Assembly: GCF_002210345.1 (NCBI RefSeq)
Contig: NZ_MWQI01000003.1
Location: forward strand, 124,001-188,000
Length of the DNA stretch: 64,000 bases
From: Fibrobacter sp. UWB4
GTDB lineage: Bacteria; Fibrobacterota; Fibrobacteria; Fibrobacterales; Fibrobacteraceae
Direction: 5' to 3'
A program made the position numbers and the translations under genes. Shown piece after piece: positions 28,403 to 32,086 of the stretch. How positions within the stretch are numbered: the stretch's first letter is position 1; every line of letters begins with the position of its first letter. The notes below the pieces were generated by a model, which saw only the letters and a list, made by a program, of their open reading frames with translations, was not told where the DNA came from and made no database searches.

Positions 28403-28764
28403 TTGGGCTGAAATATAGAAATTAGATGGGAGGAGATTGGGGGAATTGTTGCCTGCTATTACGGAAATGAACCACAAATAGAAAGTTCATAGGAATGTTC
28501 ACAGAAAAAGCGTGGATGTCGCAATTTGCGATTTCCATTTTTTTTTCGTCACTTACTAACCAAAAGACCATTTCCCATGGTGTGGGAATGTAAGTAGATG
28601 TGTTTAGGTGATTGTTTGTTCTTTTGTTTGCTTTATCTAGCGTTTTTTTATATAAATTTAGAGTGGTTGATAAAATCTAAAAACTCATGGCTGTATCTAT
28701 TGATTGTGGTAATAAAAATTTGATTAATTTATTTAAGAGAAATCGTTGACCCCGTTTTATAAGT
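28403..28764. other. Gene-free AT-rich intergenic region
   Basis: No gene is visible in this 360-base divergent region. It holds two hairpins on the + strand: GGA..TCGC/GCGA..TCC at 28514-28536 followed by a run of nine T, and CATT(T)CCCA/TGGGAATG near 28569-28590. The first looks like a terminator but no + strand gene precedes it, so a short untranslated RNA or chance structure are both possible. Confidence 0.4.
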
Positions 28765-31700
28765 ATGTTCGTTTTAATAGTTTTATTGTTTGTAATATTT
28801 GCTGTTTTTTACGTAGTTCGCCGGAGACGACTTGCTAAAGAATTTGAAGAAAAAATAAAGAGCTTCATAGAAGTCTGTGATTCTTTTTTCGTAGAATTTG
28901 ATGGAATCTTTAATCACTATATTGAAGATGCAGAAAGGGACGTTTTAATTTTTAAATATAAAGCGCTATATCATGAGTTGCAAAGATATAGTGGTATTCC
29001 GTCAAAAGTTGATGATTTTGTAAAGTTAGAAGATTTTAAGAAGAAGTATAAGGATTTCCCGAGGCTTGTCTTAGAATCAAATGTGGACATCAAATGCCAA
29101 AAGCTTTTAATCAAAGTTGAATTATTTTTTATTGAATTCGACGGATTGTTTAAACATTATATTCACGATACTGAAAGAGATACTTTCATTCTAAAATATC
29201 AGGCTTTGTATTTTGAATTGTTAGAGTGTAGTCGTATTTCTTCAAAAGTAAAAACTTATGTAAAACTAGAAGAATTTAGAAGAAAATACGAAAATTTCTC
29301 AAGACTTGTTTTAGAATCAAATGCAGAGATTAAACGTAAAGAAAATCTCAAGTTGCTTTTGCAGTTTGTGAATATTTTTTTTGATGAACTTGATTTCTTG
29401 ACTAGTCGTTATGTTACAGACTCTGATGGAAAAATATTTTATCAGAAATGGAAAAAATTGTCTCAAGATGTTGCTATTTGTAATTTGAATGTGAATGATG
29501 AAGAGTATGGGAAAATAAGTCATTTTGAAATAATCTATGATGATCTTTTTAATTATTTAGAAAAAGCGAATAAATCGTTTATTGAACAAGAATCCCAAAA
29601 GTATGATTCCCTATTTTCCAACATAGATGGAAAGTCTTTGGATATGCAACAAAGAGAAGCGATCATAACTGATGAAGATAGAATTCTTGTGCTTGCCGGA
29701 GCTGGTAGTGGAAAAACTCTTACGATTGCAGGCAAGGTAAAGTATCTATGTGATGTAAAGAACATAAGTCCAGAAGATATACTCCTTATTTCGTTTACGA
29801 AAAAATCAGCTCAAGAAATGACCGATAGAATTCAGGGAAAGTTGGGTATCCCTGTGAAATCGACTACTTTTCACAAATTGGGTCTTGATATAATCAAAAG
29901 TGCTGATGGAAAAAGACCCGACGTTCTTGATGAATCTCTCTTTAATAAATTTATACATGATTTTTTTGAAAAAGATCTTGTAAATTATCCTGAATTGGTG
30001 AAAAGTTTAATTGAGTATTTTGCGTACTATATTGATATCCCTAAAAATATGGAAGATTATTCGTCGTTGGGCGAACTGTATGAGGCTGAAAAGAGTGTAG
30101 ACTTAGAAACGTTAAGATCAAAATATGACCAAGAAAGATATATCCATGAAGAAAAAATAGAGAAAGCGCAGAATCATACAACGTTAAAAAATGAAAAAGT
30201 TAAAAGCCTCGAAGAAGTTCAAATCGCAAATTTCTTTTTTCTGAATGGTGTTGATTACGAATATGAAAAGCTCTATCCGTTTGAAAGTCAGGATCCTTTG
30301 CGAAAGGGGTATAAACCGGACTTCTATTTGAAAGATTATGATATTTATTTGGAACATTTTGGAATAACAAGAAATTATACTGTTCCGTGGCTTTCACCTA
30401 TTGAAGCTCAAAAATATTTAGATGGAATTGATTGGAAAAGAGAATTTCATAAGCAGAATAATACCAAGTTGATAGAAACCTATTCATACTACAATTCTGA
30501 AGGAGTGCTTTTACAAAAACTTGAAGAGATTTTGAAACAAAATGGCGTTATTCTGAAATCACGAGATTTCATGGATGTTTTCAATACTGTTTATGCGACC
30601 AAAACGAATAAGTATTTCTCTGAGTTTGTAAAGTTATGTGGAACTTTTATTGTACTTTTTAAGTCTAATAATTATACGTTAGAAACGATTGATGATTGGA
30701 AAGATTGGTTTTCGTTGGAAGAGAATTGTTTCTCGAAAAGAAGAAGCTATACCTTTTTAAATATAATAAAAGTAGTATTAGAAGAATATCAAAAATACTT
30801 AATAGTAAATAATTCAATTGACTTCTCGGACATGATAAATAATGCAACTGAGGATGTTAATAATGGTTGCGAAATTTCTCCGTATAAGTATGTAATTGTT
30901 GATGAATATCAGGATATCTCGAAGGCGAGATTTAATTTGTTAAAGGCGATTGTCGATAAAACAAAAGCGAAATTATTCTGTGTAGGAGATGACTGGCAAT
31001 CTATATATCGATTTGCCGGTAGCGATATTTCATTATTCACCGATATTGCAAAGTATTTGGGAAAAACGAAAATACTGAAGATCGAAAAAACGTATCGTAA
31101 TTCGCAAAAGTTAATTGATGAAGCTTCGCATTTTGTCTTGCAAAATCCACTCCAGCTCAAGAAAAGTTTACGCTCTGATAAAAAGCTGGATTATCCTCTT
31201 GTTTTTTGGGGTTTCGATGATAATCCGAGAATCGCATTGCAGGCGGTAATCAATAAAATTGTTTTGGATTTTGGAACGAACGCGTCTATTTTACTTTTGG
31301 GACGAACAAATTACGATATAGAAATTGCAAAGAATACTGGATTATTTCGAGTAGCTTGGAAGAACGGTGTGGAAACGTTAGAATACATTCAAAATCCGAT
31401 GCTGCCAATACAATTCCTTTCTGTTCACAAATCAAAGGGCTTGGAAGCGGACAATGTTATTCTTCTGAATTTTAGAAATGACAAGCTCGGTTTCCCGAAT
31501 CAGATAATTGATGATCCTGTCTTGAATTTTGTTCTTACAAATGCAGAAGATTACAGATTTGCGGAAGAACGCCGTTTGTTTTATGTTGCTATTACTCGAA
31601 CAAAAAATAGAACCTATGTCCTTGTGGACAACAAGAATCCATCGTCTTTTTTCAAGGAATTTTCAGAATCTACATCAGTGTTCTTTAAATCAACAGGAAG

Positions 31701-31980
31701 ACGAACAAGCGAAAGACAGACAAAATGTCCAGTTTGCAAAACGGGAGACTTGTTGAAAGTTGAGCATGACGGAAAAACTTTTGTGGGGTGCTCTAATTTT
31801 CCGCGGTGTCACTATACACAAAGAGACGTAACTATTTTATCAAGTCCTAAAATATGCCCTGCTTGTGGAGGGTTCCTTATAAAACGCAGGGGCTACAATG
31901 GACATTATTTTGTAGGATGTTCTAATTATCCTGCTTGCGAATATAAGGAAAGGTTGATTTGGAGCGAGTTTGTCAATTGA
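28765..31980 (+). CDS. Membrane-anchored UvrD/HelD-like helicase with nuclease-like insertion and zinc ribbons
   Basis: A 1071-residue superfamily 1 helicase. An N-terminal membrane helix (residues 1-18, followed by RRRR) is unusual. Residues about 35-265 are three ~80-residue repeats (FFxEFDGxFxHYIxDxERD in the first two). The helicase core shows Walker A GAGSGKT at 312-318, DEYQD at 713-717, GDDWQSIYRF, KTYRNS, SVHKSKGLEAD and RRLFYVAITRTKN. Between motifs Ia and II is a PD-(D/E)xK-like segment with PDFYL (D519) and YLEHFG (E530). Two topoisomerase-type zinc ribbons end the protein (from C988). The gene is much more AT-rich than neighbours, suggesting transfer. A DNA repair or anti-phage role is possible. 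Confidence 0.85.
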   Translation: MFVLIVLLFVIFAVFYVVRRRRLAKEFEEKIKSFIEVCDSFFVEFDGIFNHYIEDAERDVLIFKYKALYHELQRYSGIPSKVDDFVKLEDFKKKYKDFPRLVLESNVDIKCQKLLIKVELFFIEFDGLFKHYIHDTERDTFILKYQALYFELLECSRISSKVKTYVKLEEFRRKYENFSRLVLESNAEIKRKENLKLLLQFVNIFFDELDFLTSRYVTDSDGKIFYQKWKKLSQDVAICNLNVNDEEYGKISHFEIIYDDLFNYLEKANKSFIEQESQKYDSLFSNIDGKSLDMQQREAIITDEDRILVLAGAGSGKTLTIAGKVKYLCDVKNISPEDILLISFTKKSAQEMTDRIQGKLGIPVKSTTFHKLGLDIIKSADGKRPDVLDESLFNKFIHDFFEKDLVNYPELVKSLIEYFAYYIDIPKNMEDYSSLGELYEAEKSVDLETLRSKYDQERYIHEEKIEKAQNHTTLKNEKVKSLEEVQIANFFFLNGVDYEYEKLYPFESQDPLRKGYKPDFYLKDYDIYLEHFGITRNYTVPWLSPIEAQKYLDGIDWKREFHKQNNTKLIETYSYYNSEGVLLQKLEEILKQNGVILKSRDFMDVFNTVYATKTNKYFSEFVKLCGTFIVLFKSNNYTLETIDDWKDWFSLEENCFSKRRSYTFLNIIKVVLEEYQKYLIVNNSIDFSDMINNATEDVNNGCEISPYKYVIVDEYQDISKARFNLLKAIVDKTKAKLFCVGDDWQSIYRFAGSDISLFTDIAKYLGKTKILKIEKTYRNSQKLIDEASHFVLQNPLQLKKSLRSDKKLDYPLVFWGFDDNPRIALQAVINKIVLDFGTNASILLLGRTNYDIEIAKNTGLFRVAWKNGVETLEYIQNPMLPIQFLSVHKSKGLEADNVILLNFRNDKLGFPNQIIDDPVLNFVLTNAEDYRFAEERRLFYVAITRTKNRTYVLVDNKNPSSFFKEFSESTSVFFKSTGRRTSERQTKCPVCKTGDLLKVEHDGKTFVGCSNFPRCHYTQRDVTILSSPKICPACGGFLIKRRGYNGHYFVGCSNYPACEYKERLIWSEFVN

Positions 31981-32021
31981 TTGTTTTTTACTAACAAAAT
32001 CCCCTCTACATCTCTCTAAAA

Positions 32022-32056
32022 ACAAACAAATCCCCTCCCGTTAGGGAGGGGTTTGC
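32022..32056 (-). terminator. Terminator of glmS (possibly bidirectional)
   Basis: CCCCTCCC (32032-32039) and GGGAGGGG (32044-32051) form a perfect 8-bp stem with a short loop. Read on the minus strand it is followed by ATTTGTTTGTTTTT, suited to ending glmS; on the plus strand only TTT follows. Confidence 0.8.
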
Positions 32057-32086
32057 GCTTTGGTAATTCTTAATTCCGAATTAGCC

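What the first reader, a model, noticed from the sequence alone, without database searches (positions are those of the whole stretch)
28765..31980. AT-rich membrane-tethered helicase with 80-residue repeats and a nuclease-like insertion
A UvrD-like helicase that starts with a membrane helix, then three 80-residue repeats, and carries a PDFYL...YLEHFG segment and two zinc ribbons is an unusual combination. Its base composition is far from its neighbours and it sits alone in a long gap, suggesting recent gain. A defence or DNA-uptake role is plausible.
Basis: partly seen in the sequence, partly recalled or inferred. Interest (0 to 1): 0.55.

Follow-up and report, generated by a model that had tools for sequence, protein, structure and literature searches.

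The report
Membrane-tethered helicase-nuclease, likely defence gene
A gut bacterium carries a patchily inherited enzyme that pairs a DNA-unwinding motor with an inserted DNA-cutting fold and seems anchored to the cell membrane; relatives of the gene often sit with anti-virus genes in this genus, so it probably attacks foreign DNA.

Summary
Window 28765-31980 is one intact 1071-aa ORF: N-terminal membrane helix, three ~80-residue helical repeats, an SF1 helicase closest to E. coli DNA helicase IV (HelD), an insertion, and two topoisomerase-type zinc ribbons. The insertion is predicted (pLDDT 95.8) to have a PD-(D/E)XK fold, nearest to Vsr and I-Bth0305I. Among the nearest homologues 60 of 66 have the membrane helix, but more distant ones often lack it (6 of 18 copies in the genus). 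Repeat number runs from 1 to 4. The gene is accessory: 16 of 80 genus genomes, 19 of 167 in the phylum. Relatives carry it in a methyltransferase-HNH-helicase operon, some with a giant double helicase, or beside Wadjet, GmrSD, LlaJI/McrB or Eco57I-type genes. The window copy looks like a remnant of that operon: its leader and about 11 methyltransferase codons survive. A second species has the same solo form; the protein still evolves under constraint. Very recent gain is not supported. Best reading: a membrane-tethered helicase-nuclease that degrades incoming foreign DNA, working like SNIPE but built from other parts. Nuclease activity, membrane location and defence are all untested. New variant of known kinds.

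The parts
28765..31980 (+). helicase-nuclease gene, 1071 aa
   Evidence: ORF; PF00580 E 4.7e-46; hhalign to E. coli HelD probability 100
28765..28824 (+). N-terminal membrane helix (about residues 1-20), ending in RRRR
   Evidence: hydropathy; 60 of 66 nearest homologues, 12 of 18 genus copies; predicted helix 3-50
28846..29088 (+). helical repeat 1 (about residues 28-108)
   Evidence: 45/81 identical to repeat 2
29089..29337 (+). helical repeat 2 (about residues 109-191)
   Evidence: one such repeat fewer in the G013 copy
29338..29613 (+). helical repeat 3, divergent (about residues 192-283), next to the helicase core
   Evidence: 20-25% identity, just above shuffles
29623..29922 (+). helicase core, first part; Walker A K317 at 29713-29715
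   Evidence: K317 in 66 of 66
30172..30600 (+). PD-(D/E)XK-like insertion (residues 470-612): E484, D519, E530, H531, K558, H562, E571
   Evidence: AlphaFold pLDDT 95.8; VIA Z 10.2 to 3r3p, 9.7 to Vsr 1cw0; residues in 66 of 66
30727..31665 (+). helicase core, second part (residues 655-967), Walker B D713-E714
   Evidence: D713 and E714 in 66 of 66
31720..31824 (+). zinc ribbon 1 (C988, C991, C1009, C1015)
   Evidence: PF01396; cysteines in 66 of 66
31849..31953 (+). zinc ribbon 2 (C1031, C1034, C1052, C1058)
   Evidence: PF01396; cysteines in 66 of 66
28598..28686 (+). relic of the operon leader (promoter region)
   Evidence: aligns to sequence upstream of the methyltransferase in G018, G060 and G094; blastn E 3.5e-8 to G018 over 96 bases; score 100 against a maximum of 67 in 300 base shuffles
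28687..28749 (+). methyltransferase gene stub: about 11 homologous codons of a 20-codon frame, then stop
   Evidence: DNA alignment running through the start codon; as protein alone not significant (6 of 11 residues, E 3.3); a like stub in G083

Best explanation
An accessory, membrane-tethered helicase-nuclease that destroys foreign DNA. Proposed steps: (1) the N-terminal helix anchors it in the inner membrane, body in the cytoplasm (inferred from sequence and charge); (2) a rod of 1-4 helical repeats holds the motor at a set reach from the membrane (architecture predicted, purpose inferred); (3) the HelD-type motor, helped by two zinc ribbons, loads on single-stranded or end-bearing DNA near the membrane, as when phage or plasmid DNA enters (inferred); (4) the Vsr-like PD-(D/E)XK insertion cuts that DNA while the motor moves (fold predicted, activity inferred). 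Location and DNA structure rather than sequence would spare the host (inferred). In relatives it is encoded with a methyltransferase, an HNH protein and sometimes a giant helicase; here those genes are gone and this one is kept alone.
For: Nuclease fold with E484, D519, E530, K558, H562 and E571 in 66 of 66. Membrane helix in 60 of 66, net charge +2.5 after it. Accessory: 16 of 80, 19 of 167 and 7 of 101 genomes. Empty site of 198 bp in G013, whose own copy lies elsewhere beside JetABCD. Of 18 genus copies, 6 are in the MTase-HNH operon and 6 have known restriction or defence families in the stretch read (one in both): Wadjet genes twice, LlaJI with McrB-like/AAA twice, a GmrSD pair once, GIY-YIG with an Eco57I-type gene once. 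A GmrSD pair also adjoins a Paenisporosarcina plasmid copy. 81 plasmid records carry the domain. dN/dS 0.148 between the two solo copies.
Against: No activity has been measured. The usual lysine of (D/E)XK is a phenylalanine (F532). The membrane helix is missing in 6 of 66 nearest homologues, in 6 of 18 genus copies and, with the annotated starts, in 5 of 8 plasmid copies read; three of the six genus copies beside known defence families (G031, G077, G080) are among those without it, so the defence link does not depend on the tether. Outside the genus, near (135) and far (99) neighbours both gave only scattered PADLOC hits. Genus neighbours were chosen by eye, without a matched control. The window copy itself has no defence neighbour.
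Confidence: 0.55

Rival explanations
1. It is an accessory DNA-repair or recombination helicase in the manner of E. coli HelD, with a structure-specific nuclease, acting on the cell's own DNA; the membrane helix only parks it.
For: Closest characterised relative is HelD; fold relatives Vsr and Bax1 are repair enzymes (recalled); many copies lie beside genes that look ordinary; several relatives lack the tether.
Against: Patchy in each group tested; at different sites in close relatives and on plasmids; E. coli HelD has neither membrane helix, nuclease nor ribbons.
Confidence: 0.22
2. It is an anti-plasmid or entry-exclusion protein, acting on conjugative or transforming DNA rather than on phage.
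For: 81 plasmid records, 19 conjugative and 29 mobilizable; beside the Wadjet system (anti-plasmid, recalled) in G013 and JetA/JetB in G031.
Against: In the genus five copies lie at the chromosomal gene glmS; other neighbours such as LlaJI, GmrSD and type III Res act on phage DNA (recalled).
Confidence: 0.13
3. It helps DNA uptake (competence), unwinding or trimming DNA as it enters.
For: Membrane helix plus helicase; one CoiA-family competence gene annotated in a plasmid neighbourhood.
Against: No competence gene recognised in the genus neighbourhoods read (by eye); patchy distribution; cutting would spoil uptake.
Confidence: 0.03
4. The window copy is a decaying leftover without function.
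For: Partner genes missing, operon start reduced to a stub.
Against: Intact ORF with motifs kept, dN/dS 0.148 between two solo copies, solo form in a second species.
Confidence: 0.07

Closest known systems
E. coli DNA helicase IV (HelD, b0962)
   Same: SF1 helicase core, 33% identity over 502 columns, including the short stretch before Walker A
   Different: HelD has no membrane helix, no nuclease insertion, no zinc ribbons; the window protein scores 344.5 bits against NCBIfam's helicase IV cutoff of 543
SNIPE membrane-bound nuclease (PMC13190303; abstract, passages and discussion read)
   Same: N-terminal membrane anchor with the nuclease on the cytoplasmic side (shown for SNIPE, predicted here), variable N-terminal part, some homologues without the membrane helix, patchy across phyla
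   Different: SNIPE has DUF4041 and GIY-YIG and the word helicase does not occur in its text; this has a helicase, a PD-(D/E)XK insertion and zinc ribbons
Gabija GajB and other UvrD-like defence helicases
   Same: UvrD-type core; PADLOC RTasHel and GajB models match at up to 149 and 145 bits
   Different: Nuclease in the same chain rather than in GajA; membrane helix; no GajA in the window
Vsr and I-Bth0305I catalytic domains
   Same: Fold of the insertion, Z 9.7 and 10.2
   Different: Inserted in a helicase; 10-13% identity; different active-site letters

Membership tests
UvrD/REP SF1 helicases (PF00580, PF13361) | Pfam gathering scores | tested here: met
   158.1 bits against 23; 52.5 against 25.6
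DNA helicase IV (NF008276) | NCBIfam curated cutoff 543 bits | tested here: not met
   344.5 bits; filed as a relative, not as HelD
DNA helicase IV (NF008276) | Homologous helicase core | tested here: met
   hhalign probability 100, E 2.5e-63, 502 columns
DNA helicase IV (NF008276) | HelD N-terminal domain (PF12462, number recalled) | tested here: not met
   no such match at E up to 1; membrane helix and repeats stand there instead
PD-(D/E)XK nuclease fold | alpha-beta-beta-beta-alpha-beta core | tested here: met
   predicted model pLDDT 95.8; VIA Z 10.2 (I-Bth0305I) and 9.7 (Vsr), with TnsA 7.8, Bax1 7.5, VRR-NUC 7.1 and Hjc 6.3 below; two Toxoplasma mitoribosome chains tie at 9.7; Foldseek alone is weak, best E 0.03
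PD-(D/E)XK nuclease fold | Acidic pair D...(D/E) | tested here: met
   D519 and E530 in 66 of 66; loci were found by patterns covering 483-492 and 524-533, so E530 is partly selected for, D519 is not
PD-(D/E)XK nuclease fold | Lysine two residues after the second acid | tested here: not met
   F532 there; K558 or H562 in the next helix may stand in, both 66 of 66
PD-(D/E)XK nuclease fold | DNA cleavage | not testable with these tools
   needs purified protein
SNIPE | N-terminal membrane anchor | tested here: met
   prediction from sequence only
SNIPE | DUF4041 and GIY-YIG domains | tested here: not met
   no such Pfam match at E up to 1
Gabija | GajA (OLD nuclease) beside GajB | tested here: not met
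   window neighbours are an ScpA-like gene and glmS
HelR RNA polymerase recycling ATPase | NF041254 cutoff 750 bits | tested here: not met
   11.4 bits
RecB/AddA | NCBIfam cutoffs | tested here: not met
   recB 85.5 against 696; addA 83.6 against 708

The most novel reading that the evidence does not exclude
A widespread family of entry-site helicase-nucleases in which the motor-nuclease hangs from the inner membrane on a stalk whose length is set by counting 80-residue repeats (1-4 copies, recently duplicated again in G083), so that foreign DNA is told from self by where and how it appears, and which swaps partner modules (MTase-HNH, giant double helicase, Wadjet, GmrSD) between species, with untethered sister forms.
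Probability: 0.26. Interest if true: 0.8.

Novelty: new variant of a known kind. Interest (0 to 1): 0.55.

Why it matters
Annotation calls most plasmid copies listed only 'UvrD-helicase domain-containing protein'. If the reading is right they are an independently built membrane-placed nuclease beside SNIPE, this one with its own motor, and would make 'location as the self/non-self signal' testable in a different scaffold. The stalk repeats offer a direct handle on reach. The recurring MTase-HNH-helicase operon is a ready candidate defence system: PADLOC-DB 2.0.0 gave only a mad2-like (E 1.3e-12) and a Cas9-HNH-like (E 1.3e-5) match for its two small genes.

Tried and rejected
HNH remnant just upstream of the window helicase: rejected. 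Local scores 18-23 fall inside shuffles, with 29-174 of 300 shuffles as high.

Giant-helicase homology in Treponema loci L096 and L142: rejected. Those ORFs look like the N-terminal halves of split helicases that joined the cluster by similarity (by eye).

General defence enrichment across phyla: not shown. One nearest neighbour per side within 2.5 kb (135 proteins) and one beyond 5.5 kb (99) were scanned with PADLOC at 1e-15: 203 and 114 models matched, at most 2 and 1 members each. The tally does not say how many proteins had any hit. Five loci (L094, L096, L112, L121, L142), ORFs under 100 aa and ORFs of 1500 aa or more were left out before these counts. The ten proteins were hand-picked; L158's had no match.

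Rows dropped from the 66-row alignment A3: from 68 ORFs that passed the filter, L094 and L105 (near copies) and L131 (1178 aa, no ribbon pattern) were left out, so '66 of 66' for the cysteines is after that. Across all 80 loci the ribbon pattern was absent in 5: L101 and L112 (cut by contig end), L126, L131, L139. The 80 loci are the best of 466 confirmed, so A3 samples the near part of the family; a late check of 15 genus copies and 8 plasmid copies showed that many distant members lack the membrane helix.

Very recent import: not supported, though an unsampled recent donor is not excluded and only one other gene, glmS, was compared. HelR role: score far below cutoff. The fold lists do not exclude families that are not listed. 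Two copies (G027's first and G061's) were left out of the tree because a motif filter missed them.

Paper searches listed no title or abstract start on a membrane-tethered HelD-like helicase with a nuclease insertion; they cover only the held open-access library and these terms. Except for the SNIPE paper, only listings were seen.
Full report
What is there. Window 28765-31980 (+) encodes 1071 aa without interruption. The order is: hydrophobic N-terminal helix, three helical repeats of about 80 residues, SF1 helicase core split by an insertion (residues 470-612 modelled), and two zinc ribbons of the topoisomerase I type. GC is 0.326 against about 0.5 around it. It is the only long ORF between an ScpA-like gene and glmS.

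Family. NCBIfam's best match is DNA helicase IV, 344.5 bits, below its cutoff of 543. Profile comparison with E. coli HelD gives probability 100 and 33% identity over 502 columns; HelD lacks the membrane helix, the insertion and the ribbons. The full-length model (pLDDT 81.5) finds UvrD/PcrA structures first, best E 6.4e-18. So it is a HelD relative, not HelD.

The insertion. AlphaFold on the 66-row alignment gives pLDDT 95.8 and the order alpha-beta-beta-beta-alpha-beta. VIA-align puts I-Bth0305I (Z 10.2) and Vsr (Z 9.7) at the top, tied with two Toxoplasma mitoribosome chains (9.7), with TnsA, Bax1, VRR-NUC and Hjc below; Foldseek alone is weak, best E 0.03. E484, D519, E530, H531, K558, H562 and E571 are the same in 66 of 66. 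Two scanning patterns covered residues 483-492 and 524-533, so only D519, K558, H562 and E571 are free of that selection. The lysine usual two places after the second acid is F532; K558 or H562 may replace it (inference).

Membrane helix and stalk. 60 of the 66 nearest homologues have a strongly hydrophobic N-terminus; the 15 residues after it carry on average +2.5 charges, which by the positive-inside rule (recalled) puts the body in the cytoplasm. The trait belongs to this part of the family: in the genus 12 of 18 copies have it and 6 (G027's first, G031, G061, G077, G080, G095's second) do not, and of 8 plasmid copies 3 reach the threshold with the annotated start. The length before Walker A falls in steps: 130-168 in 42, 222-270 in 19, 310-315 in 5 of 66, which fits one, two or three repeats. 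G083 has four (Walker A at 390), and its newest pair is 223/240 identical in DNA. Repeat number therefore changes quickly.

Distribution. The insertion domain is in 16 of 80 genomes of the genus (11 of 40 good ones), 19 of 167 in the phylum (12 of 89), and 7 of 101 in the genus of L149, a Flavobacterium by its record title (two of the 7 only partial). It is on 81 of 72,556 plasmid records, in 18 viral contigs and in 4 short unannotated phage records. In a FastTree tree of 72 rows the Fibrobacter copies fall in several places, the nearest outside kin being Spirochaetaceae and Bacteroidales, and some same-genus copies are far off; starred branches alone do not rule out one origin. Transfer is likely, not proven.

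The locus. In G013 the ScpA-like gene and glmS are 198 bp apart (GlmS 98%, ScpA 99.6% identical over 260 residues), so this interval is the empty site; G013's helicase lies on another contig, in MTase-HNH-helicase followed by JetABCD. In G094 the same interval holds giant-helicase-HNH-MTase (and two further ORFs); G018 and G060 show the same four genes on the glmS side, where the far flank was not reached. G083 has the helicase in the interval with one 196-aa ORF but no match to MTase, HNH or giant. In the window, 28598-28719 aligns to the operon leader and about 11 codons of the methyltransferase (blastn E 3.5e-8 over 96 bases to G018; score 100 against a maximum of 67 in 300 base shuffles), followed by a stop and then the helicase. 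G083 has a like stub. So the solitary gene is most simply an operon remnant, probably reduced once before the two species parted. A search of the window's own genome with G018's HNH protein found nothing (no positive control in that call).

Age and constraint. Helicase dS from the window is 0.43 to G083 and 0.47-0.53 to five other relatives; glmS dS to five of these six is 0.51-0.72. GC is 0.326-0.332 in the five closest copies measured, 0.357 in G001 and 0.460 in G019. Low GC is thus a lasting trait of the near group, not a mark of last-minute arrival. dN/dS between the two solo copies is 0.148; between operon copies it is 0.108-0.234. So the lone protein seems still selected.

Neighbours in the genus, all 18 copies found read. 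MTase-HNH operon: 6 (G018, G060, G094, G071, G013, G095). Known restriction or defence families in the stretch fetched: 6 (G013 JetABCD; G031 JetA/JetB; G019 a MrcB_N/AAA protein and a LlaJI-like one; G001 C5 methylase, AAA, LlaJI and Vsr; G077 two GmrSD_N genes directly upstream; G080 a T5orf172 GIY-YIG gene directly upstream, then HD-CE/HATPase and Eco57I-type genes). G013 is in both sets, so 11 of 18 have one or the other. G031, G077 and G080 belong to the untethered copies. G027's first copy lies near a Fic gene of a PADLOC candidate family, and G092 has a PLD/ResIII/DUF3427 gene in the stretch. The window, G083, G061, G095's second copy and G027's second copy (5-kb contig) show none that I recognised. 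Selected, not all, neighbours were scanned, and there is no matched control.

Neighbours elsewhere. Of 8 plasmid regions read, 4 have restriction or exclusion genes by annotation: a GmrSD (DUF262) pair directly downstream, Lit, a C5 methylase, a restriction endonuclease with an HNH gene. Hand-picked neighbours include GajB, HsdR, a type III Res gene, a DUF262-like protein and a C5 methylase. The unselected scan shows only scattered hits near and far.

Mechanism. Shown by sequence: gene, domain order, conservation, accessory status, operon relatives, constraint. Predicted: nuclease fold, membrane helix. Inferred: tethering, nuclease activity, action on entering DNA, sparing of self by location. 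The best functional parallel is SNIPE, a membrane-bound nuclease that cuts phage DNA during injection and some of whose homologues also lack the membrane helix (PMC13190303: abstract, passages and discussion). The parts differ, so this is 'works like', not 'is'.

Verdict. A new variant of known kinds: a HelD-type motor, a Vsr-like nuclease fold and, in this branch, a membrane stalk in one protein. Defence against foreign DNA is the most likely role, at about 0.55.

Noticed in passing
window 28478-32086; loci L046, L075, L079, L080, L185, L186: The scpA-glmS interval varies within the genus: of 30 glmS loci, scpA lies within 1.5 kb in 19 (14 with a gap under 300 bp) and not in 11; other cargo sits there in G029 and G034.
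   Followed up: partly
L038:417-10390, L075, L185, L184: Operon MTase (196 aa) - HNH_4 protein (about 394 aa) - helicase - giant 1645-aa protein with a DEAD and a UvrD helicase (DpdF-like first half by PADLOC); a DEDD-like exonuclease at its start is my motif reading only, Pfam gave none. In L184 the giant is cut by the contig end.
   Followed up: partly
L190:4234-8683; L164:9854-13713: A pair of GmrSD_N proteins directly beside the helicase in two phyla, upstream in one, downstream in the other.
   Followed up: partly
L042, L044, L188-L191 (genus copies); L164-L171 (plasmid copies): The family has tethered and untethered branches: 6 of 18 genus copies and 5 of 8 plasmid copies lack a hydrophobic start. 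Several untethered genus copies begin with a short basic, aromatic segment such as MFSFIKRFFERR (by eye).
   Followed up: partly
L091, L092, L095, L108 just upstream of the helicase: In Treponema-related loci a 195-196-aa protein with a signal-like start lies 1-21 bp upstream of the helicase; lineage-specific partner or chance synteny.
   Followed up: no
L087:11764-12690, L090:11770-12696: In two Salinivirgaceae a 309-aa gene starting MxIIDAHSHLW overlaps the helicase stop by a few bases.
   Followed up: no
L126, L131, L139: Homologues without the zinc-ribbon pattern, two of them over 1170 aa, perhaps with another C-terminal domain.
   Followed up: no
L188:11249-11899: A T5orf172/MUG113 GIY-YIG gene, of the nuclease class found in SNIPE, ends about 20 bp from an untethered helicase of this family.
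   Followed up: partly
L192-L209: 18 viral contigs carry the domain, several close to a contig end, perhaps host flank or terminal cargo of proviruses.
   Followed up: no
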